From NCBI RefSeq assembly GCF_029952525.1, contig NZ_JASAOF010000005.1, positions 124,001 to 188,000 of the forward strand: DNA of 64,000 nucleotides, written 5' to 3'. Shown piece by piece: positions 44,727 through 64,000 of this stretch. A program made the position numbers and the translations under genes. Source of the stretch: Saccharopolyspora ipomoeae. GTDB taxonomy: Bacteria; Actinomycetota; Actinomycetes; Mycobacteriales; Pseudonocardiaceae. Under the pieces are notes generated by a model, which was not told where the DNA came from, made no database searches, and saw only the letters and a list, made by a program, of their open reading frames with translations. How positions within the stretch are numbered: position 1 is the first letter of the stretch; each line of letters starts with the position of its first letter.

Positions 44727-44740
44727 CCCCCGCCCAAAAT

Positions 44741-44851
44741 CCACCCGATCAAGCCCCTCAAGACGAATACCGGGGTTTTCGACCGGTCGAAAACCCCGGT
44801 TTTCGTCGCACGAATACCGCTGTTTTCGACTTGAGGGGTCCGATCGGGTGG
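44741..44851. repeat. Nested composite palindrome between gudD and the permease
   Basis: Outer arms CCACCCGATC...CCCCTCAAG (44741-44762) and CTTGAGGGG...GATCGGGTGG (44830-44851) enclose a perfect 32-base palindrome at 44769-44800 (half ACCGGGGTTTTCGACC). The words CGAATACCG(C/G)-GTTTTCGAC are also directly repeated (44765 and 44811). The whole 111 bases fold on themselves. It may reduce permease expression, end transcription partly, or be a small inserted repeat. Confidence 0.8.
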
Positions 44852-44876
44852 GGATGGGTGGCCGAGGAGGAAGGCA

Positions 44877-46331
44877 ATGATGCCTACCAGATCTTTGGAT
44901 TTTGCGAGTGCGATCTCGTTAGCCGCCGACGAGGCGCCGGAGACCGCGTGGACCCTGCCGCCTTGGGCCCTGTTGTTGCTGGTGGTGGGTGGGATCGCGC
45001 TGCTCCTGCTGCTGGTGATGAAGGCGAAGTTGCACGCGTTCGTCGCTCTGCTGGTGGTCAGCGTCGTGGTGGCGGCCGTCGCCGGCATCAGCCCCACCGA
45101 GATCCCGGGCCTTTTGGAAGACGGGATGGGCGAGACCCTCGGCGAGATCGCGATCATCGTGGCGCTGGGCGCCATGCTCGGCCGGTTGATCCAGGAATCC
45201 GGGGCCGCCGAGGTGCTGTCCGGGCGGATGCTGGCCGCTTTCGGCGAGCGGCGCGCTCCCCTGGCGGTCGGCTTGACCGCGCTGATCTTCGGGATCCCGG
45301 TGTTCTTCGACGTCGGGTTCATCATCCTGCTGCCGCTGATCTACTCGGTGGCGCAGCGCTCCGGCCGCTCGGTGATCAGCATCGCGCTGCCCGCCGTCGG
45401 CGGCCTGGCGATCATGCACGCGGTGCTGCCGCCGCACCCCGGACCGGTGGCCGCGGCGGGCCTGCTCGGCGCGAACCTCGGCTGGGTGACGATCATGGGC
45501 CTGGTCTGCGGGCTTCCCGCCTGGTTCGTCGGGGCGTACCTGTTCGGCACCCGCATCGGCGACCGGATGGGCACCCCGGTTCCCGCGCAGCTGCTCGGCG
45601 AGGCCGAGGAGCAGGCGGGCAGCGGTGGCGGTGGTGGCGTGGCGACCAAGGCCCCGCCGTCGCTGGGCGTGACGGTGGGCGTGATCCTGCTGCCGGTCGT
45701 GCTGATCATGCTCAACACCTTCGCCGAGGTCGTCCTCCCGGAGGGCGCGGTCCGCGACGTGCTGACGTTCATCGGCGCACCGGTCATCGCGCTGACGGTC
45801 GCGACGCTGCTGTCGTTCTGGGTGCTGGGCCTGCGCGGCGGGTTCTCGATGGAGCGCATCGAGAAGGCCGCGTCGGCCTCGCTGGGCCCGGTGGCCCTGG
45901 TGCTGCTGGTGACCGGTGCGGGCGGCGTGTTCGGCGCGGTCCTGGAGGCCACCGGCGCCGGTGAGGCGCTGGCCGACCTGCTCGGGCAGACGTCGCTGCC
46001 GGTGGTGGTGCTGGCGTTCCTGATCGCCACCGCGCTGCGCGTGGCGCTGGGGTCGAAGACGGTCGCGATCGTGACGACGGCCCCGATCGTGGCTCCGCTG
46101 ATCCACGAGCTGGGCCTGTCTCAGCCGGAGATCGCCCTGGTGGTGGTCGCGGTCGCCGCGGGCGGCACGGTCCTGTCGCACGTCAACGACTCGGGTTTCT
46201 GGCTGTTCAACCGCTACATGGACCTCGACATCAGGGGCACGCTCAAGAGCTGGACCCTGATGGAGACCTTCATGGGCGGAGCGGCGTTCCTCATCGCCGC
46301 CGCCCTCAGCGCGGTCCTCGCCCTCACCTGA
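44877..46331 (+). CDS. GntP-family gluconate/glucarate permease
   Basis: A 484-residue GntP/GntT-family proton symporter with about 13 helices. Seen: MLGRLIQESGAAEVLS, FGIPVFFDVGFIILLPLIY and SHVNDSGFWLFNRYMDL, all family signatures. Being next to gudD it probably imports D-glucarate or a related sugar acid rather than gluconate. GAGGAGG lies six bases before ATG 44877. It is separated from gudD by 150 bases with the composite palindrome, so it may be transcribed separately or attenuated. Confidence 0.92.
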   Translation: MMPTRSLDFASAISLAADEAPETAWTLPPWALLLLVVGGIALLLLLVMKAKLHAFVALLVVSVVVAAVAGISPTEIPGLLEDGMGETLGEIAIIVALGAMLGRLIQESGAAEVLSGRMLAAFGERRAPLAVGLTALIFGIPVFFDVGFIILLPLIYSVAQRSGRSVISIALPAVGGLAIMHAVLPPHPGPVAAAGLLGANLGWVTIMGLVCGLPAWFVGAYLFGTRIGDRMGTPVPAQLLGEAEEQAGSGGGGGVATKAPPSLGVTVGVILLPVVLIMLNTFAEVVLPEGAVRDVLTFIGAPVIALTVATLLSFWVLGLRGGFSMERIEKAASASLGPVALVLLVTGAGGVFGAVLEATGAGEALADLLGQTSLPVVVLAFLIATALRVALGSKTVAIVTTAPIVAPLIHELGLSQPEIALVVVAVAAGGTVLSHVNDSGFWLFNRYMDLDIRGTLKSWTLMETFMGGAAFLIAAALSAVLALT

Positions 46332-46501: not shown

Positions 46502-47662
46502 TCAGGGTTTCCGGGTGAAACCCGCTGGGATGAGGAGGTCTTCCGGGGTGAGGTCGTGGATGGAGGGGCGCGCCAAGGCCAGGAGGGAGGAGTCGATGCC
46601 GCTCCGGAGGATGTCGAAGACGTTGCGGACTCCGGCCTGGCCTTCAGCGGCCAGCCCCCAGAGGTACGCGCGGCCGATGAGGACCGCGCGGGCGCCGAGG
46701 GCGAGGGCCTTGACGACGTCGCTGCCCCGGCGGATCCCGCCGTCGAGGAGCACCTCGACGTCCCCGCCGACCGCCTCCGCGATCGCCGGGAGCAACCGGA
46801 TCGTCGCCGGGGTGGAGTCGAGGTTGTTGCCGCCGTGGTTGGACACCGAGATCGCCGTGGCGCCGATGTCGCGGGCGCGGCGGGCGTCGTCGGGATGCGT
46901 GATGCCCTTGATCATGAACGGGCCGCCCCAGCGCTCCCGCAGCCAGGCGACGTCCTCCCAGGTGGGAGGCGGGGTGAACATCCACTCGCCGTAGGCGCCG
47001 AAGAACGTCGGCGCGGCCTGGCCGCGCGGCACCATGTTCGGCGTGGTCAGGTCCGGCAGCCCGTGGCGGAGGAACCCGCTCAGCCAGCGCGGCCGCAGCA
47101 GGCCCTGCGGGGCGAAGCTCAGCTTCGTGCGCAGGTCCAGCTTCTCCGGGATCGGCGGGCTCCCCCAGTCCCTCCCGGTGGCGAAGCACCAGTCGAGGGT
47201 GACGATGAGCGCCTTCGCCCCGGCCGCGCGGGCGCGTTCGGCGCGGGCCAGCACCTTCTCCCGGTCGCCCACCCAGTAGACCTGGAAGAACGTCTTCGGG
47301 TTGGCCTCGACGACGTCCTCGACCGCGCGGCTGGCGAACGACGACAGCCCGATCGCCGTGCCCACCTCCGCCGCGGCGCGGGCCACCGCGACCTCGCCCT
47401 CCGGGTGCACGGCCTGCACCCCGGTCGGGGACACCACCACCGGCAGCGACAGCTCCTGGCCCATCACCGTGGTCGCCACGTCCCGCTCGGCGGGTAGGTC
47501 GGCCACGCGCGGGGCGAAGCCGAGCTCGCCGAAGGCCCGGATGTTGTCCTCCAGCGTGGACCCGCGTTCGCTGCCGGCCACCAGCGCCAGATAGACCGAC
47601 CGGGGCAATCTCCTGCGGGCACGCCGATGCGCCTCCGCCACCGTTTCGAACCACTCCGCCAT
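46502..47662 (-). CDS. mftD: MftD-like FMN enzyme (pre-mycofactocin synthase)
   Basis: A 386-residue FMN protein of the lactate/glycolate oxidase superfamily. Its N-terminus MAEWFETVAEAHRRARRRLP and runs GFAPRV, TVMGQELSLPVV, FFGAYGEWM and GGIRRGSDVVKALALGARAV match MftD, the enzyme that oxidatively deaminates the AHDP intermediate of mycofactocin. True alpha-hydroxyacid oxidases have NHGGRQLD; here it is NHGGNNLD, so the substrate-binding arginine is replaced, as in MftD. The remaining mft genes (ABCEF) are not in the window, so it is either a displaced mftD or a paralogue. It is divergent from mno across 284 bases. Confidence 0.72.
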   Translation of the reverse strand: MAEWFETVAEAHRRARRRLPRSVYLALVAGSERGSTLEDNIRAFGELGFAPRVADLPAERDVATTVMGQELSLPVVVSPTGVQAVHPEGEVAVARAAAEVGTAIGLSSFASRAVEDVVEANPKTFFQVYWVGDREKVLARAERARAAGAKALIVTLDWCFATGRDWGSPPIPEKLDLRTKLSFAPQGLLRPRWLSGFLRHGLPDLTTPNMVPRGQAAPTFFGAYGEWMFTPPPTWEDVAWLRERWGGPFMIKGITHPDDARRARDIGATAISVSNHGGNNLDSTPATIRLLPAIAEAVGGDVEVLLDGGIRRGSDVVKALALGARAVLIGRAYLWGLAAEGQAGVRNVFDILRSGIDSSLLALARPSIHDLTPEDLLIPAGFTRKP

Positions 47663-47714
47663 GCCGCACCACGCTAGGTGCCGCGCGCCCCGTCAGCACC
47701 GTGCGACCGGGTCC

Positions 47715-47770
47715 GCTGCCGCCCGTCCGATCGAACGGGCGGCAGCGTCGCTACCTGACCGATCGGACGG
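47715..47770. promoter_or_regulatory. Palindromes in the mftD/mno divergent promoter
   Basis: GCTGCCGCCCGT (47715) and its exact complement ACGGGCGGCAGC (47735) flank CCGATCGA. Nine bases on, CTGACCGATCGGACGG (47755-47770) recurs with one change at 58587-58602 in the aldehyde dehydrogenase promoter. Both are candidates for the MnoR response regulator or a GAF activator. The rest of the 284-base gap shows nothing clear. Confidence 0.55.
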
Positions 47771-47946
47771 GTGCACCCCTCCCCGATCGTCCTGATCTGG
47801 GGCCTCGGACGAGGGGTCTTGGCCCGTCGGCGTTCTCCCCGGGTGAGCTGGGGCACTAACTTCCGGCCCAGTGGCGGGTTCGACGCCCCGCTCCCCCGCC
47901 CGGCCGGAGAACAACGTGCAACGACGCGCGTGGAAAGGACAGCCAC

Positions 47947-49239
47947 ATGCAGGTCGATGAGCTGCTCAAGCCGTTCCCGATCAAGGAGTTCCACCCGTTC
48001 CCCCGCGCCCTGCTGGGCCCCGGTTCGCACGAGATGATCGGGCCGGAGGCGTTGAAGCTGGGCTTCAAGAAGACCCTGGTGATGACCTCCGGCCTGCGCG
48101 GCACCGACATCGTGCACAAGATCGTCGAGTCGATGCGCTACCACGGCCTGGAGGTCGTGGTCTACGACCAGGTCGAGTCCAATCCCAAGGACTACAACGT
48201 GATGGACTCCGTCGCGATGTACCAGGAGAACGCCTGCGACTCGTTCGTGTCGATCGGCGGCGGCTCCTCCCACGACGCGTGCAAGGGCGCGCGCATCTCG
48301 GTGGCCCACGACGGCCGCAACGTCAACGAGTTCGAGGGCTTCAACAAGTCCGAGAACCCCAAGAACCCGCCGCACATCGCCGTGTCCACCACCGCGGGCA
48401 CGGGTTCGGAGACGTCCTGGGCCTACGTCATCACCGACACCACCACCGACCCCGACAACCCGCACAAGTACGTCGCCTTCGACGACAACTCGGTGACCAC
48501 GCTGGCCATCGACGACCCGGTCCTCTACTACGACTGCCCGATCGACTACACCGCGCAGTGCGGCTTCGACGTGCTCGCGCACGCCTCCGAGCCCTACGTC
48601 TCGCGGCTGAACTTCCCGCCGTCACTGGGGAACGCGCTGCACGCGGTGAAGATGACCGCCGAGAACCTGCGCCAGGCGGTGTGGAACGGCCAGGACCTGC
48701 CCGGCCGCGAGGGCATGATGTACGCGCAGTACATCGCCGCGCAGGCGTTCAACTCCGGCGGTCTGGGCATCATCCACTCGATCTCGCACGCCGTGAGCGC
48801 GTTCTACGACACCCACCACGGGCTCAACAACGCCATCGCACTGCCGCGGGTGTGGGCGTTCAACATGCCGGTGGCCTACAAGCGCTTCGCCGACATGGCC
48901 GACGCGATGGGCGTCGACACCCACGGCATGACCGCCCCGCAGGCCGCCGACGCCGCCCTCAACGCCGCCATCCGGCTGCTGCGCGACGTGGGCATCACGG
49001 AGCGGTTCGTCGACGTCACCGCCGACACCTACTCCAAGAACCGGCTCGGCCAGGGCCCGACGAAGTTCTACGAGCGCTCGAAGGAGATCAAGGGTGACGC
49101 CGCCGACGTCGACCGCATCACCAACCACGTCCTCGGCGACGCCTGCACCCCGGGCAACGCCAAGGAGTGCACGTTCGACACGGTGCGCCCGGTCGTCGAG
49201 CACTGCATGACCGGGGATCTGGACGACCTGCTGACCTGA
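47947..49239 (+). CDS. mno: NDMA-dependent methanol dehydrogenase (nicotinoprotein)
   Basis: A 430-residue iron-type/family III alcohol dehydrogenase that matches the actinobacterial Mno/Mdo enzymes (MQVDELLKPFPIKEFHPFPR). Seen: cofactor loop SIGGGSSHDACKGARI, STTAGTGSETSWAYVITD, and metal ligands in HASEPYVS and IIHSISHAVSAFYDTHHG. The family holds NADH tightly, oxidises methanol and other short alcohols, and is measured with the dye NDMA; mycofactocin is thought to be the natural electron acceptor. GGAAAGG precedes the ATG. It heads an operon with moxR, VWA and mftM-like genes. Confidence 0.92.
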   Translation: MQVDELLKPFPIKEFHPFPRALLGPGSHEMIGPEALKLGFKKTLVMTSGLRGTDIVHKIVESMRYHGLEVVVYDQVESNPKDYNVMDSVAMYQENACDSFVSIGGGSSHDACKGARISVAHDGRNVNEFEGFNKSENPKNPPHIAVSTTAGTGSETSWAYVITDTTTDPDNPHKYVAFDDNSVTTLAIDDPVLYYDCPIDYTAQCGFDVLAHASEPYVSRLNFPPSLGNALHAVKMTAENLRQAVWNGQDLPGREGMMYAQYIAAQAFNSGGLGIIHSISHAVSAFYDTHHGLNNAIALPRVWAFNMPVAYKRFADMADAMGVDTHGMTAPQAADAALNAAIRLLRDVGITERFVDVTADTYSKNRLGQGPTKFYERSKEIKGDAADVDRITNHVLGDACTPGNAKECTFDTVRPVVEHCMTGDLDDLLT

Positions 49240-49332
49240 TCCCCCTCGGACCGGCCGTGGTGTCGCGCCCTCCGACCTGTGCGGCACCACGGCCCTCCCA
49301 CCCAGCACCGCTCGCATCCCGGAGGTATCGCA

Positions 49333-50520
49333 GTGCTCGACGACATCGCGGATCAACCCGGCGACAAGCCCTTCGAGTCCGTCGAGGAGGTGATCAACCG
49401 CTTCGGCGAGCACGGCTACATCTCCGACCGGCGGCTGGCCACCACCGTCTTCCTCCAGTCCAGATTGGACAAACCGCTGCTGCTGGAAGGCCCTGCGGGC
49501 GTGGGCAAGACCGAGCTGGCCAAGACCCTCGCCGAGGTCACCGGGCGCAAGCTGCTGCGGTTGCAGTGCTACGAGGGCCAGGACGAGAGCAAGGCGCTCT
49601 ACGAGTGGGACTACGGCAAGCAGCTGCTCTACACCCAGATGCTGCGCGACAAGATCGGCGAGATCATCGCCGACGCCCCGGACCTGACGACCGCGATCGA
49701 CCGGATCGGCGCGCAGGACAGCGTGTTCTTCTCCGACCGGTTCCTGGCCGCCCGGCCGCTGCTGGAGGCGATCCGCGGCGAGCAACCTGCGGTGCTGCTG
49801 GTCGACGAGGTCGACCGCGCCGACGAGGCCCTCGAGGCGGTGCTGCTGGAGTGCCTGGCCGAGTTCCAGGTCTCGGTCCCCGAGGTCGGCACCTACACCG
49901 CGACCACCCCGCCGTACGTGGTGCTCACCTCCAACAACACCCGCGACCTGTCGGCGGCGCTGAAACGCCGCTGCCTGCACCTGTTCCTGGACTACCCGGA
50001 CCACGACCGGGAGCTGGAGATCGTCCGCTCCAAGCGCACCGGGCTGCCGGAGAACCTGGCCGAGCAGCTGGTGACGGTGGTGCGGCGGCTGCGCGAGCTC
50101 AAGCTGCGCAAGGCCCCGTCGATCTCCGAGACCATCGACTGGGCGCGGACTCTCGCCGTGCTCGGCGCCGAGGACCTGGGCTCGGAGGTGCTGGCCGAGA
50201 CCGTCAACGTGGTCGTGAAGTACGAGCGCGACCTGCAGCAGGCGCTGGACGTGATCGGGCACATGGGCGATCCGAACCGCGACATCCCGCAGCAGCTCCC
50301 GGCCCGCGGCCACGGGCACGGACATGGGCACGGCCACGGGCACGACCACGACCGCGGTGACGACCACGACGACGGGCCCGAGGTGCGGGCCGCCAAGGAC
50401 CGGCCGGGCCGCCACGACGATTCCTACTACGGCGCACCGGGTTCCGCCTCGTCCGGTCAGCGGGCCACGGGCAGCCAGGGGGCGCGGTCGTTCTCCTCGG
50501 TGACCCGCCGCAAGTCGTGA
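49333..50520 (+). CDS. MoxR-type AAA ATPase with histidine-rich tail
   Basis: A 395-residue AAA protein. Seen: Walker A EGPAGVGKTELAKTLA, Walker B VLLVDEVDRADE, sensor 1 LTSNNTRDLS. It fits the MoxR/CoxD group of chaperone-like ATPases that work with VWA proteins to insert metal centres or mature enzymes. The C-terminus has (GH) repeats from about residue 318, then HDHDRGDDHDD, a probable metal-binding stretch. GTG 49333 has GGAGGT six bases upstream. It lies 93 bases behind mno and 10 before the VWA gene, so its client is probably Mno or the iron alcohol dehydrogenase. Confidence 0.9.
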   Translation: MLDDIADQPGDKPFESVEEVINRFGEHGYISDRRLATTVFLQSRLDKPLLLEGPAGVGKTELAKTLAEVTGRKLLRLQCYEGQDESKALYEWDYGKQLLYTQMLRDKIGEIIADAPDLTTAIDRIGAQDSVFFSDRFLAARPLLEAIRGEQPAVLLVDEVDRADEALEAVLLECLAEFQVSVPEVGTYTATTPPYVVLTSNNTRDLSAALKRRCLHLFLDYPDHDRELEIVRSKRTGLPENLAEQLVTVVRRLRELKLRKAPSISETIDWARTLAVLGAEDLGSEVLAETVNVVVKYERDLQQALDVIGHMGDPNRDIPQQLPARGHGHGHGHGHGHDHDRGDDHDDGPEVRAAKDRPGRHDDSYYGAPGSASSGQRATGSQGARSFSSVTRRKS

Positions 50521-50530
50521 GGAGCACGCC

Positions 50531-52048
50531 GTGGAATCCGCCCTGCACCGGTTCGTCCGGTTGTTGCGCCTGTTCGGCGTGCGCATCTCCGTGTCCGAGG
50601 CCACCGACGCGATGCGCTGCGCCGCCCAGCCCGGCATGCTCGACGACCGGGACGCGCTGCGCAACGCCCTGAAGGTCGCGATGATCAAGGACCGGCGCGA
50701 CGAGGAGATCTTCGACGAGGTCTTCGACGCGTTCTTCGCGCTGCGCCCGGTCGTGCCCGACGACGCCGAGCACGAGCACACCCACGAGCACGACGACCTC
50801 TCCGACACCGGTGAGCTGCAGTCGTTCACCGTCTCCGAGGAGCCCGCGGAGACCCCGCAGGAGGGGCACACGCACGCCAAGCCTGCCGACATCCGCGACT
50901 ACTTCGACCCCGAGGACCTGGCCCAGCAGTACAACCTGCACCAGGAGAGCAACAAGATCGACCTCGCCTCGATGACCGACGAGGTCGTGTTCTCCAGCGA
51001 CAACAGCAGCACCGGAGGCGGTTCGGTGCCGTCGGTGCAGCTGGAGACCGAGCGGCTGCACAACGCGGGCACTCCCGGGTCGCTGGCCGAGCACACCGGG
51101 CAGCGCATCGACACCCGGCTGAGCATCGCCGAGGAGCAGACGCTGCTGGACTGGCTCGGCGAGGACGAGGAGCCCGACGCGGCGCCGCGCGGACAGCTCA
51201 CCGGCGTCCTGGAGAACCTGCCGGAGCTGCTCAAGCAGCACCTGGCCAAGCTCGCCGAGCTGGAGCGCACCGCCAAGGAGTCCCGCGAGGTCACCGCCGG
51301 GCGGCTGGACCGGGTCGACGAGGGCGAGCGCCAGCAGCTGGAGGAGTCGCTGCGGCGGATCGTGCACAGCCTGCGCGGGGCGCCGACCAGCAAGCGCCGC
51401 AACACCCCGCGCGGGCGGGTGCACCCGGCGCGGACGATGCGCCGCAACATGCGCTACGACGGCGTCCCGTTCCGGCCGGTCACCGTCACCCGCGCCGAGG
51501 ACAAGCCGAGGCTGGTGGTGCTGGCCGACGTGTCGCTGTCGGTGCGCTCGACCGCCCGGTTCACGCTCCACCTGGTGCACGGGCTCCAGTCGCTGTTCAC
51601 GCAGGTCCGCACCTTCGCGTTCGTCGACGATCCGGTGGAGATCACCGAGCTGTTCACCGATCACCCGCTGGAGCGGGCGCTGGGGCTGGTGTTCGACGGG
51701 TTGCCGCAGGGCGGAGTGCTCGACGTCGACGGCAACTCCGACTACGGCGCCACCTTCAGCCGGTTCCTGGAGGACTTCGGCACGACGCTCAACCGCCGGA
51801 CGACGGTGCTGATCCTCGGTGACGGGCGCGGCAACGGCAACGACCCGCACGTCGACGCGCTCGCCGAGATCGCCCGCCGCGCGCGGGAGACCATCTGGCT
51901 CACCCCGGAGCCCCGGTACTCGTGGCGGCTGGGGCGCTGCGACCTGCCGGACTACGCCGACCACTGCGACCGGGTGCAGGTGGTGCGCGACCTGTCCGGG
52001 CTGGCGAAGGCGGCCGAGTCCATCGCGACGGAGGTGACCGGGCGGTGA
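50531..52048 (+). CDS. CoxE-like VWA-domain protein
   Basis: A 505-residue partner of the MoxR ATPase. The C-terminal VWA domain carries the metal-ion-dependent adhesion site DVSLSV and the later GDGRGNGND loop. The middle is acidic with histidine-rich patches (EHEHTHEHDD, EGHTHAK) and a long helical segment. GTG start with GAGGAG upstream. In CO dehydrogenase and similar systems CoxD/CoxE pairs help build the metal centre; by analogy this pair may assist metal loading of the alcohol dehydrogenases beside it. The last 4 bases overlap the methyltransferase gene. Confidence 0.88.
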   Translation: MESALHRFVRLLRLFGVRISVSEATDAMRCAAQPGMLDDRDALRNALKVAMIKDRRDEEIFDEVFDAFFALRPVVPDDAEHEHTHEHDDLSDTGELQSFTVSEEPAETPQEGHTHAKPADIRDYFDPEDLAQQYNLHQESNKIDLASMTDEVVFSSDNSSTGGGSVPSVQLETERLHNAGTPGSLAEHTGQRIDTRLSIAEEQTLLDWLGEDEEPDAAPRGQLTGVLENLPELLKQHLAKLAELERTAKESREVTAGRLDRVDEGERQQLEESLRRIVHSLRGAPTSKRRNTPRGRVHPARTMRRNMRYDGVPFRPVTVTRAEDKPRLVVLADVSLSVRSTARFTLHLVHGLQSLFTQVRTFAFVDDPVEITELFTDHPLERALGLVFDGLPQGGVLDVDGNSDYGATFSRFLEDFGTTLNRRTTVLILGDGRGNGNDPHVDALAEIARRARETIWLTPEPRYSWRLGRCDLPDYADHCDRVQVVRDLSGLAKAAESIATEVTGR

Positions 52049-52965
52049 CTGCCGGGGAACGCGCGGCGCTGCACATCGACCCGCTGGACCACATCGACCC
52101 GCTGGCCCCGCACGGCCGCGACCCGCTGGTCACCGTCGGCCGCCACGAGTCGACGTGCGACGCGCGGGTCGCGGTGACCCGCACGCCGCACTTCTGCCTG
52201 CACCGACGGGATCACCGGATGGAGGTGGCCCACTGGTTCAGGCCAGAGCAGCTGGACAACAACCTGGCGGGCGTGCTGGCCGACGAGCTGTTCGCACCCG
52301 GCTGGCTCAGCGGCGTGGAGGTCTTCGAGCGGGTGTTCACCGAGGTCGTGCAGTCGGTGATCGACGACCCGCTGCGCGCGTGGACGACCTTCTACGACAA
52401 CACCCTGGCCCGCATCCGGGAGTGCTGGGCGTCGCCGGCCGAGCGCGCGCCGCACTCCTCGATCGCGGACTTCGCCCCGCTGTACCGGCGGGTGCTGGGG
52501 ATGGCCCCGCCCGGCCGGGTGCTGGACCTGGGCTCGTGCTTCGGGTTCCTGCCGCTGCTGTTCGCCGAGCGGGGCGAGCACACGGTGATCGCCTCGGACC
52601 TGGCCCCCGGCAGCATGCGCCTGCTCAAGACCGTCGCCTCCACCCGAGGTCACCACATGCACACGCTGGTCTGCGACGCGACTCAGGTCCCGCTCCCCGA
52701 CGGCGCGGTCGACACGGTCACGGCGATGCACCTCCTGGAGCACCTCGAACCGGCCCGGGGGGACGCGGTCCTCGCCGAAGCCCTCCGCTTGGCCCGCCGC
52801 CGGGTCATCATCGCCGTCCCCTACGAGGACGAGCCCAACGCCGCCTTCGGCCACGTCCGCACCTTCGCCGAAGCCGACCTCCACCACCTCGGCGCCACCA
52901 CGGGCCACCCCTACGAGGTAACCCACCACCACGGGGGCTGGCTCGACATCCGAAAGACACCCTGA
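52045..52965 (+). CDS. mftM: SAM methyltransferase, MftM-like (mycofactocin oligosaccharide)
   Basis: A 306-residue class I methyltransferase: SAM loop VLDLGSCFGFLPLLFAERG, VIASDLAPGSMRLLK, and CDATQVPLPDGAVDTVTAMHLLEHL. In Mycolicibacterium smegmatis the mycofactocin-glycan methyltransferase MftM lies in the same gene order behind mno, a MoxR ATPase and a VWA gene, so the assignment rests on both sequence type and neighbourhood. It would methylate the cellulose-like sugar chain of mycofactocin. The GTG start overlaps the VWA stop (GTGA). A palindrome cluster follows. Confidence 0.75.
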   Translation: MTAGERAALHIDPLDHIDPLAPHGRDPLVTVGRHESTCDARVAVTRTPHFCLHRRDHRMEVAHWFRPEQLDNNLAGVLADELFAPGWLSGVEVFERVFTEVVQSVIDDPLRAWTTFYDNTLARIRECWASPAERAPHSSIADFAPLYRRVLGMAPPGRVLDLGSCFGFLPLLFAERGEHTVIASDLAPGSMRLLKTVASTRGHHMHTLVCDATQVPLPDGAVDTVTAMHLLEHLEPARGDAVLAEALRLARRRVIIAVPYEDEPNAAFGHVRTFAEADLHHLGATTGHPYEVTHHHGGWLDIRKTP

Positions 52966-52972
52966 CACCGCG

Positions 52973-53150
52973 CAGTTTTCATGAAAACCGTCCCACCCCA
53001 CGACGGACGAAACTCCCGTGTTCCCCTCACGGGAGTGGGGTGGGTGGAGGGAAGTTTTCATGAAAACCTCGGTTCCCACCTGACCGAGTGGGCTCCTGCC
53101 CGGACACTCGTGTTTCGTTGGTGGTGTGGGGAAGTTTTCATGAGAACTTC
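52973..53150. repeat. Cluster of GAAGTTTTCATGAAAACTTC palindromes
   Basis: Three copies lie between the ends of the two convergent alcohol operons: GCAGTTTTCATGAAAACCGT (52973), GAAGTTTTCATGAAAACCTC (53051) and GAAGTTTTCATGAGAACTTC (53131). Between them ACTCCCGTG/TCACGGGAGT and CCACCCCAC/GTGGGGTGG form further hairpins. The set matches the 13.1 kb cluster in content and arrangement. Confidence 0.8.
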
Positions 53151-53153
53151 GCG

Positions 53154-53816
53154 TCAGATGAGGTGGAGTTTGCTGGCTTCGTAGACCGCTTCCGCTCGGC
53201 TGGTGGCGGTGAGCTTGCGCATGATGTTGCGGACGTGGAACTTGACCGTGGTCTCGGAGATGAAGAGCTTGGTGCCGATGTCCCGGTTGCTGAGGCCGTG
53301 GGCGAGCTGGCGGAGGACGTTGAGCTCTCGTTCCGTCAAGCGGGGTTCCGCGGTGGGGGTGTTCATCGACTCGACCATCGCGGCGGCCGAGCGGGAGTCG
53401 AAGGAGCTCTCGCGGCGGGCCACGGCGCGGATGGAGCGGACCAGCTCGGTGGTGTCGACGTCCTTGACGACGTAACCGCGGGCGCCGCGGTGGATGGCGT
53501 CGACGACCAGCCCGCCGTCGAGGAACGTGGTGAGCACCAGGACGCCGAGGTCCGGGTAGCGCTCGGTGAGCTGCCCGCACAGCTGCAGCCCCTCGGTGTT
53601 GTCCCCGGTGGACAGCTTGAGGTCGAGCAGCACGATGTGCGGTGCGGCGTCGGCGACGACGGTCAGCGCCTCGGCCGCGGTGGCCGCCTCCCCGACGACC
53701 TGCAGGTCGTCCTCCCGTTCGAGCACCGAGCGCAGCCCGTGCCGGACGATGGCGTGGTCGTCGACGAGCACGATCCGCACCGGTGGGCTTCCGGTGCGCT
53801 GGTCGGGCAGCCTCAC
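53154..53816 (-). CDS. mnoR: NarL/LuxR-type response regulator, MnoR-like
   Basis: A 220-residue response regulator: receiver with acidic pair VDD, phospho-acceptor Asp65 (LLDLKLS) and Lys in VVKDV, then LuxR helix-turn-helix LTERELNVLRQLAHGLSNRDIGTKL. GTG 53816 overlaps the sensor kinase stop by GTGA. Position in a mno/mftM/iron-ADH locus matches the MnoS-MnoR system of M. smegmatis, which activates alcohol oxidation genes. Likely targets here are the mno and iron-ADH promoters. Confidence 0.82.
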   Translation of the reverse strand: MRLPDQRTGSPPVRIVLVDDHAIVRHGLRSVLEREDDLQVVGEAATAAEALTVVADAAPHIVLLDLKLSTGDNTEGLQLCGQLTERYPDLGVLVLTTFLDGGLVVDAIHRGARGYVVKDVDTTELVRSIRAVARRESSFDSRSAAAMVESMNTPTAEPRLTERELNVLRQLAHGLSNRDIGTKLFISETTVKFHVRNIMRKLTATSRAEAVYEASKLHLI

Positions 53817-55183
53817 GGCGTCACCTCCCGCTCCGGCGGCAGCGGCACCCGCAGCTGCAGCGCCACCCCGCCCATCCGCGAGCGCCGGATGCTCAGCGCG
53901 CCGCCGAGCTCCTCCGCCCGCGCCGCCATGTTCGCCAGACCCCGGTGCCGGCCCGCCAGATCGGCCGCCTCGGAGAGCTTCAGGGACCGCCGCAGCTGCG
54001 CGGGATCGCCGATGCCGTCGTCGGAGACCGTGAGCCGCAGTTGGTCGGCCTGGTAGACCAGCTGCACGACGGCACGGGTGGCTTCGGCGTGCGAGACGAT
54101 GTTGAACAGCGCTTCCCCGGTGAGCCGCAGGATGGAGCTCTCATCCTCCGGCGGCAGCGGCGCGGGGCTTCCCGCGACCCGCACCTCGACCTCCAGCTCG
54201 CTGGAGAGGTGCACTGTGGACAGTTGTTTGAGCAGCACCGGCAGCGATCCCGGTGGTTCCTCGGCTCCGTGGTGCAGCGCGTAGATCGCGGCGCGCAGTC
54301 GCTCCACGGCCTGCTGGGTGAGCCCCTTGGCCGGGGCGAGCTTCTCGGCGACCTGCGCGGCTTCCGGCCCCATGTCGGCGAGTTCGGCGCGGCACACCTC
54401 GACGGTCATGCCTGCGCTGAGGACGTACTGGGTGACGGTGTCGTGCAGTTCGCGGGCGATGCGGTGCCGCTCGTCGTCGAGGGCCTGGCGCTGCATGGCC
54501 TCGACGAGGCGTCGCTGGGTCTCCTGCAGCTCGGCGTTGCGGGCGGCCAGGTCCCGGGCCTGCTGGGCGGCGGCCTCGGAGAGCTGCTCGGTGCGTCCGC
54601 GCAGCTGGGCGGCGGCGTGGAACAGGAACGAGTTGTGCACGGCGACGGCGGCCTGGTTGGCCAGGACCCGCAGAATCGCCAGGTCGGTGTCGGCGACCTG
54701 CACGTCACCGGGCCAGCCGACGATGCCGCCGACGGGTTCGCCGTCGAGGGTCATCGGCGCCCGCACCCAGCCGGGCCCGCCGGGTTCGAGCTCGATCTCC
54801 CACGGCCGGTTGCGGATGACGTCGAGCTGCTCGCGCGCCTCGGGTGGCAGCGCGGCCTCGTCGTCGACGAGTTCGCCGCGGTGCAGCAGCAGGAACCGGG
54901 GCCGGGCGGCGCGCAGCGCGCCGTCGGCGATGCCGACGAGCATCCGGTCGGCCTGCAGGTGCTCTGCCGCGGCCCGGACGACGGCTTCGACCAGCGTGCG
55001 CGGCCCTTCGACGGTGCGCACCAGGGCGCCGGAGATCCGGTCGAGGGCCTGCACGGCGTGCTCCAGGCGCTCGGCTGAGCGGACGTACTCCGGGTAGAAG
55101 GAGCGCTTGCCGGAGCGCAGCCCGGTCAGCACGCCGAGGTCGTCGCCGAAGTCGCCGCCGGACATCGCGGCCTCATCGCTCAC
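53813..55183 (-). CDS. mnoS: GAF-domain sensor histidine kinase, MnoS-like
   Basis: A 456-residue soluble sensor kinase without membrane helices. A GAF domain (about residues 60-190, with LRVLANQAAVAVHNSFLF) is followed by a coiled coil, a HisKA_3 box with the phospho-His in RIARELHDTVTQYVLSAGM, and an ATPase domain ending in VSDDGIG and RGLANMAARAEELGG. GTG 55183 overlaps the alcohol dehydrogenase stop by 4 bases; ATG 55165 has a better GAGG site. It presumably senses an alcohol or aldehyde through GAF and phosphorylates the coupled MnoR-like regulator. Confidence 0.82.
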   Translation of the reverse strand: MSDEAAMSGGDFGDDLGVLTGLRSGKRSFYPEYVRSAERLEHAVQALDRISGALVRTVEGPRTLVEAVVRAAAEHLQADRMLVGIADGALRAARPRFLLLHRGELVDDEAALPPEAREQLDVIRNRPWEIELEPGGPGWVRAPMTLDGEPVGGIVGWPGDVQVADTDLAILRVLANQAAVAVHNSFLFHAAAQLRGRTEQLSEAAAQQARDLAARNAELQETQRRLVEAMQRQALDDERHRIARELHDTVTQYVLSAGMTVEVCRAELADMGPEAAQVAEKLAPAKGLTQQAVERLRAAIYALHHGAEEPPGSLPVLLKQLSTVHLSSELEVEVRVAGSPAPLPPEDESSILRLTGEALFNIVSHAEATRAVVQLVYQADQLRLTVSDDGIGDPAQLRRSLKLSEAADLAGRHRGLANMAARAEELGGALSIRRSRMGGVALQLRVPLPPEREVTP

Positions 55184-56418
55184 AGCGCGGCCCGGAACAG
55201 CCGGGCGATGTCGGTGGCGCGCGCCTCGCGCGGATTCGTCGTCAGGCAGGCGTCTTTGAGCGTGTTGCGCGTCAGCACCGGGATGTCCGCGTCGGACACC
55301 CCGAGCGAGCGCAGCGTCTTGGGCACGCCGACGACGTCGGCGAGCTCCCGCACCCGCTCGGCCAGGGTCAACGCCACCTCGACGTCGGGCACCCCGTCGG
55401 TGTCGATGCCGATCGCGGCGGCCAGCGGGACGTAGCGGGCCGGGTCGGTCTCGGCGTTGAACCGGATGACGTGCGGCAGCAGCACCCCGTTGATCACCCC
55501 GTGCGGAGCGTCGAGCAACCCGCCGACCTGGTGGCTCATGGCGTGGGTGGCGCCGAGGATCGCGTTGGTGAAGGCCATCCCGGCCTCCAGCGCGCCCTGG
55601 GCCATCGCGATCCGCGGTTCGGCCTCGGCGGGCCGGAACAGGGTGCGCGCGAGGTTGCCGGTGATGAGCGTCGCGGCGTGCAGCGAGTGCTGCTCGGTGA
55701 GGGTGTTGTGCGCGCGGGAGACGTAGGACTCGATGGCGTGGGTGAGCGCGTCGAGGCCGGTCGCGGCGTTGAGCCAGTCCGGCATGCTGGTCAGCAGCCG
55801 GGGGTCGACCACCGAGATCTCGGGCACCAGCGCCCGGCTCAGGATCGTGATCTTGGTGGCGTTGGCGGTGTCGGTGACGATGGCGAACTGGGAGACGTCG
55901 GCTCCGGTTCCCGAGGTCGAGGGCGCCATGACCAGCGGCGGGATCGGGTGCACGACCTGGTCGACGCCTTCGTAGTCGAGGATGCGGCCGCCGTTGCCGG
56001 ACAGGATCGCCACGCCCTTGGCCGCGTCGATCACCGAACCGCCGCCGACCCCGATGATCACGTCGGCGCCGGACTCGGCGTAGCGGCGGTGCGCGGCCTC
56101 GATCTCGTGGTCCTTCGGGTTGGGCGTGACCGCGTCCCACACGACCGCCGAGAGCCCGACGGCTTCGAGGTGGCCGACGGCCTCCGCCGCCCAGCGGGCC
56201 TCGGTGAGCCCGCCGTCGGTGACCAGGAACGGGCGGCGGGCGCCGAGGCGCCGCGCGCAGTGCCCGAGCTCGGCCAGCGCGCCGGGACCGAACACGACCT
56301 CCGGCACGTGGAACTTCGCCAGCCTCGGCGGTTCACCGCCGGGCCGCGTGATCCGCGGTCCGGGCAGCTCGGCCACGCCGAGCTCGGGCGGGCTGGGCAC
56401 CCGGCTTCGCACTGTCAT
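55180..56418 (-). CDS. Iron-containing alcohol dehydrogenase (1,3-propanediol dehydrogenase-like)
   Basis: A 412-residue group III alcohol dehydrogenase. Seen: GVGGGSVIDAAKGVAIL, APSTSGTGADVSQFAIV, metal ligands in DALTHAIESYVS and ATHAMSHQVGGLLDAPHG. It oxidises short alcohols or diols to aldehydes. In M. smegmatis a 1,3-propanediol dehydrogenase lies beside the MnoSR genes, so the same role is likely. ATG 56418 has GGAGG eight bases upstream. It heads the operon with mnoS and mnoR, linked by two 4-base overlaps. Confidence 0.88.
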   Translation of the reverse strand: MTVRSRVPSPPELGVAELPGPRITRPGGEPPRLAKFHVPEVVFGPGALAELGHCARRLGARRPFLVTDGGLTEARWAAEAVGHLEAVGLSAVVWDAVTPNPKDHEIEAAHRRYAESGADVIIGVGGGSVIDAAKGVAILSGNGGRILDYEGVDQVVHPIPPLVMAPSTSGTGADVSQFAIVTDTANATKITILSRALVPEISVVDPRLLTSMPDWLNAATGLDALTHAIESYVSRAHNTLTEQHSLHAATLITGNLARTLFRPAEAEPRIAMAQGALEAGMAFTNAILGATHAMSHQVGGLLDAPHGVINGVLLPHVIRFNAETDPARYVPLAAAIGIDTDGVPDVEVALTLAERVRELADVVGVPKTLRSLGVSDADIPVLTRNTLKDACLTTNPREARATDIARLFRAAL

Positions 56419-56531
56419 CAGGCATCCTCCAGGCACCGGTGCGTCGGATCTGCGAACGCCGGTCGGGTCGACGCGCTGGAACGGGACCCATCCTATCCCG
56501 GAACGTGACCCCGACCACAGCAGCGAGACCG

Positions 56532-56562
56532 GCGGGGTCCGCCCGGTCCGGGCGGACCCCGC
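56532..56562. terminator. Hairpin terminator of the aldehyde dehydrogenase operon
   Basis: A perfect 13-base-pair stem GCGGGGTCCGCCC with a GGTCC loop lies 31 bases past the DUF779 stop and before the promoter of the iron alcohol dehydrogenase, separating two same-strand operons. Confidence 0.75.
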
Positions 56563-56592
56563 AGCCGCCCCCACCGCACGGCGCTCGCCGGG

Positions 56593-56966
56593 TCAGGCGA
56601 GGCCGAACGCCTCGAGCTCGTCGTCGGTGAGAAGTCGCGAGCGGATCAGGAACCGGACGCCCTCGGGGGCCTCCAGCGAGAACCCGCTGCCGCGGCCGCG
56701 CACGACGTCGATGGTCAGGTGGGTGTGCTTCCAGTACTCGTGCTGCGACTCCGACATCCACACCGGCACCGCCTCGCCGTCCACGTCGAGGTCGCCGAGG
56801 TGGACGTCGGAACCGCCGGTGCGGAACTCCCCGGCCGGGTAGCACATCGGGGCGCTGCCGTCGCAGCAGCCGCCGGACTGGTGGAACATCAGCGGACCGT
56901 GGTCGGCCCGGAGGCGGCGGAGCAGGTCCACCGCCTCCGGGGTCACGGCCACCCGGGCGGGCTCCA

Positions 56967-56967
<1 letters not shown>
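56593..56967 (-). CDS. DUF779-family protein
   Basis: A 124-residue DUF779 protein with the family runs MFHQSGGCCDGSAPMCYP (three cysteines), EYWKHTHLTIDVVRGRG and the C-terminal LTDDELEAFG. The start ATG shares one base with the TGA of the aldehyde dehydrogenase, so it is translationally coupled to it. This pairing is common in actinobacteria and proteobacteria; the role is unknown, perhaps a metal- or thiol-dependent partner of the dehydrogenase. Confidence 0.88.
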
Positions 56968-58490
<1,523 letters not shown>

Positions 58491-58545
58491 GCGTTGCCTC
58501 CTGGACGAGAACTCCGTTGTCTCCGCCGATCGTGGCGCGCCGCAC

Positions 58546-58602
58546 GTTGCAACGAGGTTGCACCGGCCGTTGCGCCGATCGGCTGACTGACCGAACGGAC
58601 GG
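58546..58602. promoter_or_regulatory. Divergent ALDH/GAF promoter with GTTGCA repeats and shared 16-base motif
   Basis: GTTGCA occurs at 58546 and 58557, with GTTGCG at 58569, at 11-12 base steps, so on one helix face. It is followed by CTGACCGAACGGACGG (58587-58602), which is 15 of 16 identical to the motif before mno. GTTGCA direct repeats also precede the monooxygenase at 21.27 kb. They are likely sites for the GAF activator and a common regulator. Confidence 0.55.
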
Positions 58603-58697
58603 TGTTGCGCCTGGTGGCGGGTGACGCCCTTGTCCCCGGGATCACGCGTGGTCATGATGTGCTCACGCGTCGACGAGGACGCAGGACTGGAGGCACG

Positions 58698-60197
58698 GTG
58701 CAGGCCGAGGAGGAGACCCCGACCGCGACGATGCTCGCCGACCCGCTGGAGTACGCGTCGCTGCTGGGCCGGGTGTGGGACGCCGTGCTGCGCGGGGACC
58801 GCGCTCCCCGCTCGCCGCGGACGCTGGTCTCGGAGTCCTGGCAGCGCTCGCTGGCCGCCGAGGTCGATCCCGACGCCTGCGAGGCACCCGTGGTCTGCGA
58901 GCGCGACGAGGTCCGCGACCTGCGCGACGAGCACCCCCTCCGGGCCGCGATCCCGGTGCTGCGCCAGACCGTCCTCGACGTCGCCGACGAGGCGATGCAC
59001 GTGATGATCGTGACCGATCGCGACGGGCTGATCCTGTGGCGCGAGGGGCATTCCGAGGTGCAGCGCCGCGCCGACAAGGTGCGGCTGAGCGAGGGCACCC
59101 GGTGGGCCGAGGAGGCCATCGGCACCAACGCGATGGGAACGACGCTCGCGGTGGGCAAACCGGTGCAGATCTACTCCGCCGAGCACCTGGTGCGCACGTA
59201 CCACGACTGGACCTGCGCGGCGAGCCCCATCCACGACCCCGACACGGGTGACGTGCTGGGATCTGTGGACATCAGCGGCCCGCTGCGCACCGTGCACCCG
59301 GCGATGGTGTCGCTGGTCAGCGCGGCGGCGCAGCTCGCCGAGAGCCACCTGCGGGCGCGGATGGCCGCTCGCGACGAGCAGCTGCGGGCTCGCAACATGC
59401 CGCACCTGCGGGCGCTGCGCGGCGAGGCCGGTGCGCTGCTGACCCGCACCGGGCGGGTGCTGGCGGTGGAGCCGGGGGCGGCGCTGCTGCCCGAGCGCGT
59501 CGACGTCACCGACGGCCGGATCACCCTGGCCGACGGGCGCGAGGCCGTGCTGGAGCGGCTCGCCGAGGGCTACCTGCTGCGGGTGCCGGGTTCGTCGACG
59601 ACCCGCGCCCGCCCGCGTCCGGTGCTGTCGCTGTCGTTCCTGGACTCGGGTGGTCCGCGCGCGGTCCTCGACGGGCGCGAGGTCCCGCTGTCGTTGCGGC
59701 ACGCGGAGATCCTGACGCTGCTGGCGATGCGCCCGGCCGGGCTCACCGCCGACAAGCTGGCGTTCCAGCTCTACGGCGAGCGCGGCAACCCGGTCACCGC
59801 CCGCGCCGAGATCCACCGGCTGCGCGCGCACCTGGGCGAGCACGTCATCGCCACCAAGCCCTACCGGCTGCAGGCCGCGGTCGACGCGGACTTCCTGACG
59901 GTGCGCCGCGCGCTGCACGACGGTGATCTGCGCACCGCATCGGAGGCCTACCGGGGGCCGCTGCTGGAGGCCAGCGAGGCCCCGGCGATCCGCGACGAGC
60001 GGGAGGAGCTGTTCGCCTCGCTGCGCAACGCCGTGCTCGACCGCGGCGACGTCGCGGCCCTGTGGGCGCTGTTCCGCGACCACCCCACCGACGACCTGGA
60101 GGTGCTGGGCCAGCTCGCCCACCGCCTGCCCCGCCACGACGCGCGGCGCCCGCTGGTGACCGCCCGCATGCAGCAGGTCCTCGCGGGCGAGGTCTGA
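58698..60197 (+). CDS. GAF-domain activator with winged-helix and BTAD-like tail
   Basis: About 499 residues and a paralogue of the regulator at 21.3-22.6 kb. The GAF part has [20 protein letters not shown] and [20 protein letters not shown]. The DNA-binding part is an OmpR/SARP-like winged helix ([34 protein letters not shown]), and here it continues into a short BTAD-like helical tail absent from the paralogue. GTG 58698 follows GGAGG closely; the ATG a few codons in is an alternative. It is divergent from the aldehyde dehydrogenase and probably activates it when alcohol or aldehyde is present. Confidence 0.87.
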
Positions 60198-62441: not shown

Positions 62442-62447
62442 TGATTC

Positions 62448-62498
62448 CCGCCCCGCGCCACTCCTGGTGGCCGCGCCACTCCCGGTGGCGCGGGGCGG
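62448..62498. terminator. Hairpin terminator between choA and gcoB
   Basis: Perfect 14-base arms CCGCCCCGCGCCAC and GTGGCGCGGGGCGG flank a partly self-complementary loop, followed by TT. It lies between convergent genes and can serve both. Confidence 0.8.
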
Positions 62499-62501
62499 TT
62501 C

Positions 62502-63533: not shown

Positions 63534-64000
63534 CACACCTCCCAGACGGCGCGCAGCTCGATCGGGCCGCGGAAGCCCCAGCCCCAGAAGTCGACCTCGT
63601 GGTCGGCGTCGGGCTCCAGGTTCGGGATGGCCTCGAACAGCTCCTCCAGCGCGATCCGCACGACCTCGGTCGCGAAGTACGTTCCCGCGCAGGCGTGCTT
63701 GCCCGCGCCGAAGGCCAGGTTCGGCACCGGCGTGCGGTCCAGGTCGAACGCCGCCGGGGACGAGTAGTCGTTCTCGTCGTGGTTGGCCGAGCCGTAGGAC
63801 ATCATCACCACCGACCCGGCGGGCAGCTCGATGCCGTCGATGACCATGTCCCGGTGGTTGCGCCGCGCCACCGCCGACCAGATCGGCGAGGTCCAGCGCA
63901 CGCCCTCGGTGATGGCCCGGCGCACCAGCGACGGGTCGTCGACGACCCGTTCCAGCTGGTCCGGCCGCGTGAACAGGCCCGCGATGGTGGAGGCCATCGC
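63533..64000 (-). CDS. gcoA: GcoA-like cytochrome P450 (CYP255 aromatic O-demethylase), C-terminal part
   Basis: The gene runs off the right edge; the last 155 residues are visible. They match GcoA closely: [32 protein letters not shown] (ExxR), [14 protein letters not shown], heme loop [14 protein letters not shown] and the end [12 protein letters not shown]. GcoA demethylates guaiacol to catechol plus formaldehyde; relatives accept alkylguaiacols. It is translationally coupled to gcoB. The active-site phenylalanines that set substrate choice lie outside the window. Confidence 0.88.

What the first reader, a model, noticed from the sequence alone, without database searches (positions are those of the whole stretch)
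46502..60197. Mycofactocin-linked alcohol oxidation island
mno, MoxR ATPase, CoxE-like VWA and MftM-like methyltransferase form one operon. A convergent operon holds an iron alcohol dehydrogenase with GTGA-coupled MnoS/MnoR-like sensor and regulator. An MftD-like gene diverges from mno, and an aldehyde dehydrogenase/DUF779 operon with a GAF activator follows. The set covers enzymes, cofactor modification, likely maturation factors and two control systems. The core resembles the M. smegmatis methylotrophy locus; the added mftD-like gene and aldehyde module on the flanks appear to be a different arrangement. Protein families are established knowledge; the joint pathway is inference.
Basis: partly seen in the sequence, partly recalled or inferred. 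Interest (0 to 1): 0.85.

Follow-up and report, generated by a model that had tools for sequence, protein, structure and literature searches.

The report
Alcohol-oxidation locus with mycofactocin finishing genes
A soil bacterium keeps, in one stretch of DNA, an alcohol-burning enzyme, its control switch, its probable assembly helpers and two genes that help finish the unusual cofactor it runs on; the locus is a known kind found in many related bacteria, but the helper ATPase carries a histidine-rich tail that suggests it handles metal.

Summary
All named genes are at 46502-60197, and the genome (Saccharopolyspora, near S. flava) carries two mycofactocin gene sets. The core is not unusual: of 80 named relatives, mno has the MoxR/VWA pair in 78, mftM in 72, a convergent kinase/regulator in 54, and mycofactocin biosynthesis genes within about 10 kb in 56. 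The mftD is a true MftD and looks like the residue of a linked cluster; five genomes of the genus have one mftD, beside mno, and one mftC on another contig. A palindrome (CCTGnCCGATCGGnCAGG) stands upstream of mno in 71 of 98 loci; its only two exact sites in this genome lie between mftD and mno, so both arms are probably induced together. A weaker variant lies in the ALDH-activator gap. New here: the MoxR ATPase has a histidine-rich tail in 88 of 96 loci (0 of 4 in the high-scoring methanol-oxidase branch), and the VWA protein has invariant histidines; their best structural matches are NorQ and NorD, a metal-insertion pair (weak models). Best reading: an alcohol-induced, mycofactocin-dependent oxidation locus that also helps finish its cofactor and probably metallates its enzyme. 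Metal insertion, substrate and regulation are inferred.

The parts
46502..47662 (-). mftD, premycofactocin synthase (FMN enzyme), divergent from mno
   Evidence: TIGR03966 690.5 bits, cut-off 470.85; groups with six Saccharopolyspora mftD, SH-aLRT 98, quick tree
47721..47740 (.). palindrome 1 (probable MnoR/MadR box), exact 18-base site 47722-47739
47753..47772 (.). palindrome 2 (probable MnoR/MadR box), exact 18-base site 47754-47771, starting 193 bases upstream of mno
47947..49239 (+). mno, NDMA-dependent (mycofactocin-linked) alcohol dehydrogenase, 430 aa
   Evidence: TIGR04266 666.3 bits, cut-off 625; 60-64% identical to four rows of the high-scoring branch, 77-89% to 13 rows of its own branch
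49333..50520 (+). madB-like MoxR AAA+ ATPase
   Evidence: NF047784 382.5 bits, below cut-off 475; GPAGVGKT and D158-E159 invariant in 42 rows; best PDB fold match NorQ (model pLDDT 59.4)
50311..50370 (+). histidine-rich tail of the MoxR protein (residues 327-346)
   Evidence: at least 5 His in 20 residues in 88 of 96 MadB proteins
50479..50493 (+). C-terminal GxRxF motif of the MoxR protein (G383, R385, F387)
   Evidence: invariant in 42 of 42 rows of A3; R385 and F387 in at least 97% of 96 rows
50531..52048 (+). madC-like VWA protein
   Evidence: NF047783 293.1 bits, below cut-off 600; Pfam VWA_CoxE over cut-off; D333, S335, S337 and H83, H85, H87, H113, H115, H137 invariant in 42 rows; best PDB fold match NorD
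52045..52965 (+). mftM, mycofactocin oligosaccharide methyltransferase; only match over cut-off in the genome
   Evidence: NF041255 345.7 bits, cut-off 200
53154..53816 (-). response regulator (MnoR/MadR type, LuxR-family output domain)
   Evidence: NF047785 342.9 bits, cut-off 300; Pfam GerE and Response_reg
53813..55183 (-). sensor histidine kinase (MnoS/MadS type)
   Evidence: NF047786 602 bits, cut-off 500
55180..56418 (-). iron-containing alcohol dehydrogenase (putative 1,3-propanediol dehydrogenase, or ErcA-like regulatory partner)
   Evidence: ErcA model 448.2 bits, cut-off 550 not reached; Pfam Fe-ADH
56593..56967 (-). DUF779 protein
   Evidence: PF05610 159.6 bits
56967..58490 (-). 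acetaldehyde dehydrogenase, ExaC type
   Evidence: NF050026 968.7 bits, cut-off 900
58586..58603 (.). variant palindrome ACTGACCGAACGGACGGT between ALDH and activator, possible weak MadR box
   Evidence: 3 mismatches to the consensus; similar site at nearly the same place in L049, L050, L051, L053
58731..60197 (+). GAF-domain transcriptional activator (AcoR/DhaR-like); start uncertain
   Evidence: Pfam GAF; DhaR model 69.7 bits, cut-off 551 not reached

Best explanation
An alcohol-induced, mycofactocin-dependent alcohol oxidation locus. MnoS/MnoR-type signalling acts on two tandem palindromes between mftD and mno and switches on both arms. To the right, Mno oxidises alcohols with a bound nicotinamide and passes electrons to mycofactocin (from the literature on Mno, not tested here); the MoxR/VWA pair matures Mno, most likely by metal insertion; MftM methylates the cofactor's sugar chain. 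To the left, MftD does the redox-activating step of cofactor synthesis. The Fe-ADH either oxidises diols or serves as signalling partner of the kinase; the aldehyde dehydrogenase removes the product. mftD is what remains of a mycofactocin cluster that in many relatives lies beside mno; it can supply the step missing from the mftABC..FE cluster elsewhere in the genome. Shown: genes, homology, synteny, trees, the two exact palindromes, the histidine-rich tail. Inferred: regulation, metal insertion, substrate, pathway completion.
For: Family matches; two mft sets in the genome; mftM only here. Synteny in 80 named loci: madB 78, madC 78, mftM 72, madR 54, madS 54 (all convergent to mno), Fe-ADH 51, any of mftB-F 56. 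Trees place window mftD and the C11 mftC with genes that lie beside mno in S. subtropica and S. rectivirgula. Genus, 22 genomes: mftC 21, mno 12, mftD over cut-off 11; mftD in 9 of 12 with mno and 2 of 10 without, Fisher p 0.03, rows not independent. Palindrome at 2 or fewer mismatches in 71 of 98 mno upstream regions against 11 of 490 shuffled; exact sites in this genome only there. PMC11303327 (abstract and passages seen): the MnoR site of M. smegmatis is single, 137 bp upstream of mno; loss of mnoSR lowers mno and MSMEG_6239. Histidine tail in 88 of 96 MadB; best fold hits NorD and NorQ. PMC7174638 (passages seen): MSMEG_6240-6242 expression changes with zur and zinc.
Against: No expression or binding data for this organism. 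Structure models are weak (mean pLDDT 66.5 and 59.4). The high-scoring branch (L150-L153, 4 of 4) and 4 further loci (L154, L164-L166) have MadB without the histidine tail, so it is not essential to the whole family. One mno with full flanks (L067, a second mno of its genome) has no MoxR/VWA pair beside it. 3 of 12 mno genomes of the genus have no mftD over the cut-off, two of them with a D-less mft cluster right beside mno. The window genome has a second mftD in C47, so here the D step need not come from this locus. No palindrome at 4 or fewer mismatches lies in the 300 bases upstream of Fe-ADH in the window, L049 or L055. 27 of 98 mno upstream regions lack a site at 2 or fewer mismatches. 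One-mismatch sites occur at 20 other places in the genome, one of them inside the C11 mftE match. The ALDH site is 3 mismatches off. In M. smegmatis the mno genes fall with added zinc, which does not by itself point to zinc insertion.
Confidence: 0.7

Rival explanations
1. The MoxR/VWA pair is an activase, not a metal inserter: it remodels Mno to free a dead-end nicotinamide or to let mycofactocin in, like the Rubisco activase pair CbbQO (recalled).
For: MadB also matches CbbQ; PMC12926040 (listing and start of abstract only) tells of an activator protein for the related Bacillus methanol dehydrogenase; MadB without a histidine tail still accompanies Mno in 8 of 96 loci.
Against: Histidine-rich tail in 88 of 96 MadB and invariant histidines in MadC; best fold hits are NorQ and NorD, which serve iron insertion, though the models are weak.
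Confidence: 0.3
2. mftD is a redundant leftover of a broken-up cluster with no special role, since C47 carries mftABCDE.
For: Second mftD in C47; no other of mftB, C, E, F lies in the window (listed).
Against: 88-97% protein identity in four sister species; G151, G152, G154, G155 and G165 each have one mftD, beside mno, and one mftC on another contig; it shares the mno palindromes.
Confidence: 0.2
3. The Fe-ADH is a signalling partner of the kinase, as ErcA is in Pseudomonas ethanol control (recalled), rather than a catabolic diol dehydrogenase.
For: Best NCBIfam model is ErcA (448.2 bits); four-base overlap with the kinase gene; it accompanies madS and madR in 51 of 54 loci, the three exceptions being L096, L106 and L125.
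Against: ErcA cut-off 550 not reached; the M. smegmatis gene in this role is described as putative 1,3-propanediol dehydrogenase.
Confidence: 0.3
4. The physiological substrate is mainly methanol (a methylotrophy locus), not ethanol, longer alcohols or diols.
For: TIGR04266 name and score over cut-off; MnoSR and Mno literature on methanol (passages).
Against: The window enzyme is only 41 bits over the cut-off and 60-64% identical to the high-scoring branch; an acetaldehyde-type ALDH lies next to it; the same literature also ties Mno to ethanol and MnoSR to 1,3-propanediol.
Confidence: 0.25

Closest known systems
mno / mnoSR locus of Mycolicibacterium smegmatis (MSMEG_6236-6242)
   Same: mno (6242), AAA ATPase (6241), hypothetical protein (6240), putative 1,3-propanediol dehydrogenase (6239), MnoS (6238), SAM methyltransferase (6237), MnoR (6236); single MnoR site upstream of mno (PMC11303327 and PMC7174638, passages)
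   Different: here two palindromes, mftD divergent, mftM as last gene of the mno arm, a convergent Fe-ADH/kinase/regulator arm, histidine-tailed MoxR. The M. smegmatis DNA itself was not examined, so gene directions and tail there are untested
NCBIfam MadB, MadC, MadR, MadS models (NF047784, NF047783, NF047785, NF047786)
   Same: best models for the four proteins
   Different: MadB and MadC below their cut-offs, MadR and MadS above; the paper behind the Mad names was not found
NorQ/NorD
   Same: MoxR AAA+ plus VWA pair beside the enzyme it serves; best PDB fold match for both
   Different: target would be a soluble Fe-ADH-family dehydrogenase, not nitric oxide reductase; histidine-rich tail and GxRxF motif on the ATPase
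mycofactocin cluster mftABCDEF
   Same: MftD and MftM are members by cut-off
   Different: only D and M here; A, B, C, E, F lie in two other loci

Membership tests
NDMA-dependent methanol dehydrogenase (TIGR04266) | score over curated cut-off 625 | tested here: met
   666.3 bits
NDMA-dependent methanol dehydrogenase (TIGR04266) | tightly bound nicotinamide, activity with NDMA rather than free NAD | not testable with these tools
   needs protein
MftD premycofactocin synthase (TIGR03966) | score over cut-off 470.85 | tested here: met
   690.5 bits
MftM (NF041255) | score over cut-off 200 | tested here: met
   345.7 bits
MadB (NF047784) | score over cut-off 475 | tested here: not met
   382.5 bits
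MadC (NF047783) | score over cut-off 600 | tested here: not met
   293.1 bits
MadR / MadS (NF047785, NF047786) | scores over cut-offs 300 and 500 | tested here: met
   342.9 and 602 bits
MnoR target site | palindromic site upstream of mno, not elsewhere in the genome | tested here: met
   exact sites only in the mftD-mno gap, two copies; 20 other places at one mismatch
MnoR target site | same letters as the published M. smegmatis site | not tested
   the letters were not in the text seen
MoxR/VWA metal-insertion pair (NorQD type) | Walker A and DE box in the ATPase, MIDAS DxSxS in the VWA protein | tested here: met
   invariant in 42 of 42 rows each
MoxR/VWA metal-insertion pair (NorQD type) | finger-like extension of the VWA domain that enters the ATPase pore | tested here: inconclusive
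   model of mean pLDDT 66.5 too weak to judge
MoxR/VWA metal-insertion pair (NorQD type) | target lacks metal when the pair is absent | not testable with these tools
   needs deletion and metal analysis
ErcA (NF041833) | score over cut-off 550 | tested here: not met
   448.2 bits
ExaC acetaldehyde dehydrogenase (NF050026) | score over cut-off 900 | tested here: met
   968.7 bits
MftG (TIGR04542, NF038210, TIGR03970), for the GMC enzyme at 60870 | score over cut-off | tested here: not met
   50.4 of 400, 38.9 of 300 and 32.3 of 387.45 bits

The most novel reading that the evidence does not exclude
The MoxR/VWA pair is a dedicated metallation machine for mycofactocin-linked alcohol dehydrogenases: the ATPase carries its own histidine-rich metallochaperone tail and a C-terminal docking motif, and the same MnoR switch that makes enzyme and metallator also makes the redox-activating (MftD) and the methylating (MftM) enzyme of the cofactor, so enzyme, metal and cofactor are completed together only when alcohol is present.
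Probability: 0.35. Interest if true: 0.7.

Novelty: new variant of a known kind. Interest (0 to 1): 0.45.

Why it matters
In 78 of 80 named loci mno travels with a MoxR/VWA pair, and I found no paper that explains why (open-licence library only). A histidine-rich tail in 88 of 96 loci makes metal insertion a directly testable answer. The split pathway (one mftC in a D-less cluster, one mftD beside mno) offers a natural test of when MftD is needed, and genomes of the genus with mftC but no mftD over cut-off ask what those clusters make.

Tried and rejected
Rejected: that the arrangement is peculiar to this genome. That the GMC enzyme at 60870 is MftG. That the C11 mftE is broken: one search reports a TGA inside the match, but the frame is open from its start to a stop at its end. 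Led nowhere: the origin of the Mad names (one search found 0 papers, mostly a depression scale with the same letters). Sequence search of the PDB with MadC gave no VWA protein at E up to 1. The structure models are too weak to show a NorD-type finger. Papers holding two of MoxR, histidine-rich, mycofactocin: 1, about prophages in a mycobacterium, not read; one search listed 6 papers, none with both MoxR and histidine-rich. So no description of the histidine tail was found in these two searches; the library lacks most subscription journals.

Limits of the counts. The 80 named loci are the best 80 of 380 relatives and lean to close kin. The 98-locus set adds the window and 17 unnamed loci, some probably the same genome as a named one: L124 and L160 share a contig length, and L049 is nearly the window. 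Both flanks are full in 62 of 80 named loci, so absences in the other 18 mean little; of the 62, 61 have madB and madC, 58 mftM, 43 all six core genes, 45 any of mftB-F. MadB and MadC rows number 96 of 98: L067 and L076 lack them, L076 with only 126 bases of contig left. Alignments A2 and A3 used 42 of 96 rows. Trees are quick ones with SH-aLRT support only, and the MftD outgroup branch is very long. Shuffles are Markov shuffles. Gene calls in relatives are tblastn hits over score thresholds that I set. Of the 25 mftC places, 22 were looked at (own two, 16 in L168-L183, L184, L201-L203); G153:C275, G164 and G170 were not.
Full report
What is there. The window lies in contig C43 of a 6.63 Mb genome in 47 contigs. 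The closest named locus, L049 from Saccharopolyspora flava, has the same genes at 89-99% protein identity (best segments), so the organism is most likely a Saccharopolyspora.

Mycofactocin in the genome. mftA twice and mftC twice over cut-off. The C11 site holds an NDMA-dependent Zn-ADH, mftA, mftB, mftC, two OYE-type oxidoreductases, a mycofactocin-associated EtfA, a FixC-like protein, mftF and mftE, but no mftD. The C47 site holds mftA, B, C, D, E and a sugar-type ABC transporter, without mftF. mftD over cut-off occurs in the window (690.6 bits) and in C47 (641.8 bits). mftM over its cut-off occurs only in the window.

Synteny. A genome scan with 18 aligned Mno proteins gave 80 named loci, the best of 380. 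Of 80: madB 78, madC 78, mftM 72, madR 54, madS 54, Fe-ADH 51, all six 49; mftC 48, mftD 34, any of mftB-F 56 (two of these mftF only); ALDH 20, DUF779 17, activator 31, all three of these 12. Where madS is present it is convergent to mno in 54 of 54. Loci of Streptomyces, Actinomadura, Nocardioides, Phycicoccus, Pseudonocardia, S. subtropica and S. rectivirgula, among others, have mft genes near mno; some Pseudonocardia, Amycolatopsis and other loci have none. In S. flava, S. rhizosphaerae, S. dendranthemae, S. endophytica and one MAG mftD is the only one of mftB-F found. Four loci of the high-scoring TIGR04266 branch (L150-L153) have mno, madB, madC; three of them continue with Fe-ADH, madS, madR on the same strand and mftM opposite. 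In the order sample mno was found in 17 of 150 genomes, own included.

Origin of mftD. In a tree of 38 rows the window mftD sits with six Saccharopolyspora mftD, two of them (S. subtropica, S. rectivirgula) in mno-linked clusters, SH-aLRT 98; the C47 mftD sits with Janibacter and Nocardioides. In a tree of 52 rows the C11 mftC sits in a ten-row group, SH-aLRT 100, with mno-linked mftC of the same two species and of Streptomyces and Actinomadura. In the genus (22 genomes) mftC is in 21, mno in 12, mftD over cut-off in 11; mftD is in 9 of 12 genomes with mno and in 2 of 10 without, Fisher p 0.03, rows not independent. In G151, G152, G154, G155 and G165 the one mftD is beside mno and the one mftC on another contig. 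The 16 mftC regions L168-L183, from 16 other genomes, are of the C11 kind and show no mftD in the stretch fetched (11-18 kb each). G153 and G167 have a D-less cluster of this kind beside mno. With a loose threshold the 11 genomes without mftD over cut-off give best scores of 105-341 bits; scores of that size also occur beside a true mftD in G151 and G156. That mftD is not in every species with the cluster was already stated in 2011 (PMC3023750, passages seen).

Control. The best palindrome site upstream of mno (400 bases) has 2 or fewer mismatches in 71 of 98 loci against 11 of 490 shuffled regions; 63 of these 71 start 120-260 bases upstream, range 48-379. In 300-base regions, at 2 or fewer mismatches: mno 70 of 98 (15 of 490 shuffled), Fe-ADH 34 of 65 (4 of 325), activator 14 of 33 (2 of 165), ALDH 5 of 21 (2 of 105); mftM, meant as a negative control, 5 of 81 (6 of 405), which is itself somewhat above its shuffles. 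In this genome the only exact sites are the two between mftD and mno; at one mismatch the pattern hits 12 and 14 times on the two strands against 1 and 1 for the reversed pattern, and 20 other places are hit. The window has no site at 4 or fewer mismatches in the 300 bases upstream of Fe-ADH, nor have L049 and L055, while S. rhizosphaerae and S. subtropica have one at 1 and 0 mismatches. A variant lies at 58586-58603 in the ALDH-activator gap, with a like site at nearly the same place in four sister species. In M. smegmatis the MnoR site is single and upstream of mno, and loss of mnoSR lowers mno, the propanediol dehydrogenase and, under carbon limitation, an aldehyde dehydrogenase elsewhere, MSMEG_1543 (PMC11303327, abstract and passages).

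The MoxR/VWA pair. MadB has invariant Walker motifs and ends in a histidine-rich stretch followed by a tail with G383, R385 and F387 invariant in 42 rows. At least 5 histidines in 20 residues occur in 88 of 96 MadB: 88 of 89 loci whose mno is at least 82% identical to the window's, and 0 of 7 others. The same measure in the other proteins of these loci: at most 3 in MadR, 4 in MadS, 5 in MadC (12 of 96), and in single cases 6 in MftM (2 of 82) and Fe-ADH (1 of 65); MadB mostly has 7-14. MadC has invariant H83, H85, H87, H113, H115, H137 and D333, S335, S337. AlphaFold models are weak (mean pLDDT 66.5 MadC, 59.4 MadB), yet the best PDB match of MadC is NorD (E 7.7e-6; other VWA domains follow closely) and of MadB NorQ (E 8.3e-9). 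NorQ and NorD are needed for iron insertion into nitric oxide reductase (PMC13036017, abstract and introduction). By sequence MadB matches midasin best, then NorQ and CbbQ. In M. smegmatis MSMEG_6240-6242 are lower in a zur mutant and with added zinc, and MSMEG_6237 is higher on zinc depletion (PMC7174638, table passages); this links the locus to metal state but does not show which metal goes where.

Judgement. The locus is a variant of the known mno/mnoSR system. The histidine-tailed MoxR, the palindromes shared by mftD and mno, and the split mycofactocin pathway are the informative parts. Metal insertion by MadB/MadC, induction by alcohol, and completion of the C11 pathway by this mftD are inferences.

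Noticed in passing
L008 and L167 (G000 C11), L168-L183: Mycofactocin clusters without mftD but with OYE-type oxidoreductase and a mycofactocin-associated EtfA in the own genome and 16 fetched genomes of the genus; 10 of 21 mftC genomes of the genus have no mftD over cut-off. What they make is open.
   Followed up: partly
L009 (G000 C47): Second set mftABCDE followed by a sugar-type ABC transporter, of the Janibacter/Nocardioides lineage, without mftF.
   Followed up: partly
L159, L162: mftB, mftC, mftD, mno, madB, madC run in one direction, as if mno were part of the mft operon.
   Followed up: no
L058, L068, L085, L087, L099, L112, L123: Palindromes (0-1 mismatches) upstream of the GAF activator in Streptomyces, Amycolatopsis and Actinomadura loci, suggesting the aldehyde module is under the same switch there.
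   Followed up: partly
G167:C117:9376-10617: mno of this genome is reported with one inner TGA.
   Followed up: no
L067: A second mno of Pseudonocardia acidicola with full flanks but none of the sought neighbours.
   Followed up: no
window 43404-46331: Glucarate dehydratase-like gene (822.6 bits, cut-off 828.7) and GntP-family transporter next to the locus; sugar-acid catabolism, apparently unrelated.
   Followed up: no
window 60870-63997: GMC (cholesterol-oxidase-like) enzyme, ferredoxin-type reductase and a P450 reading frame beyond the locus; the GMC enzyme is not MftG by score.
   Followed up: partly
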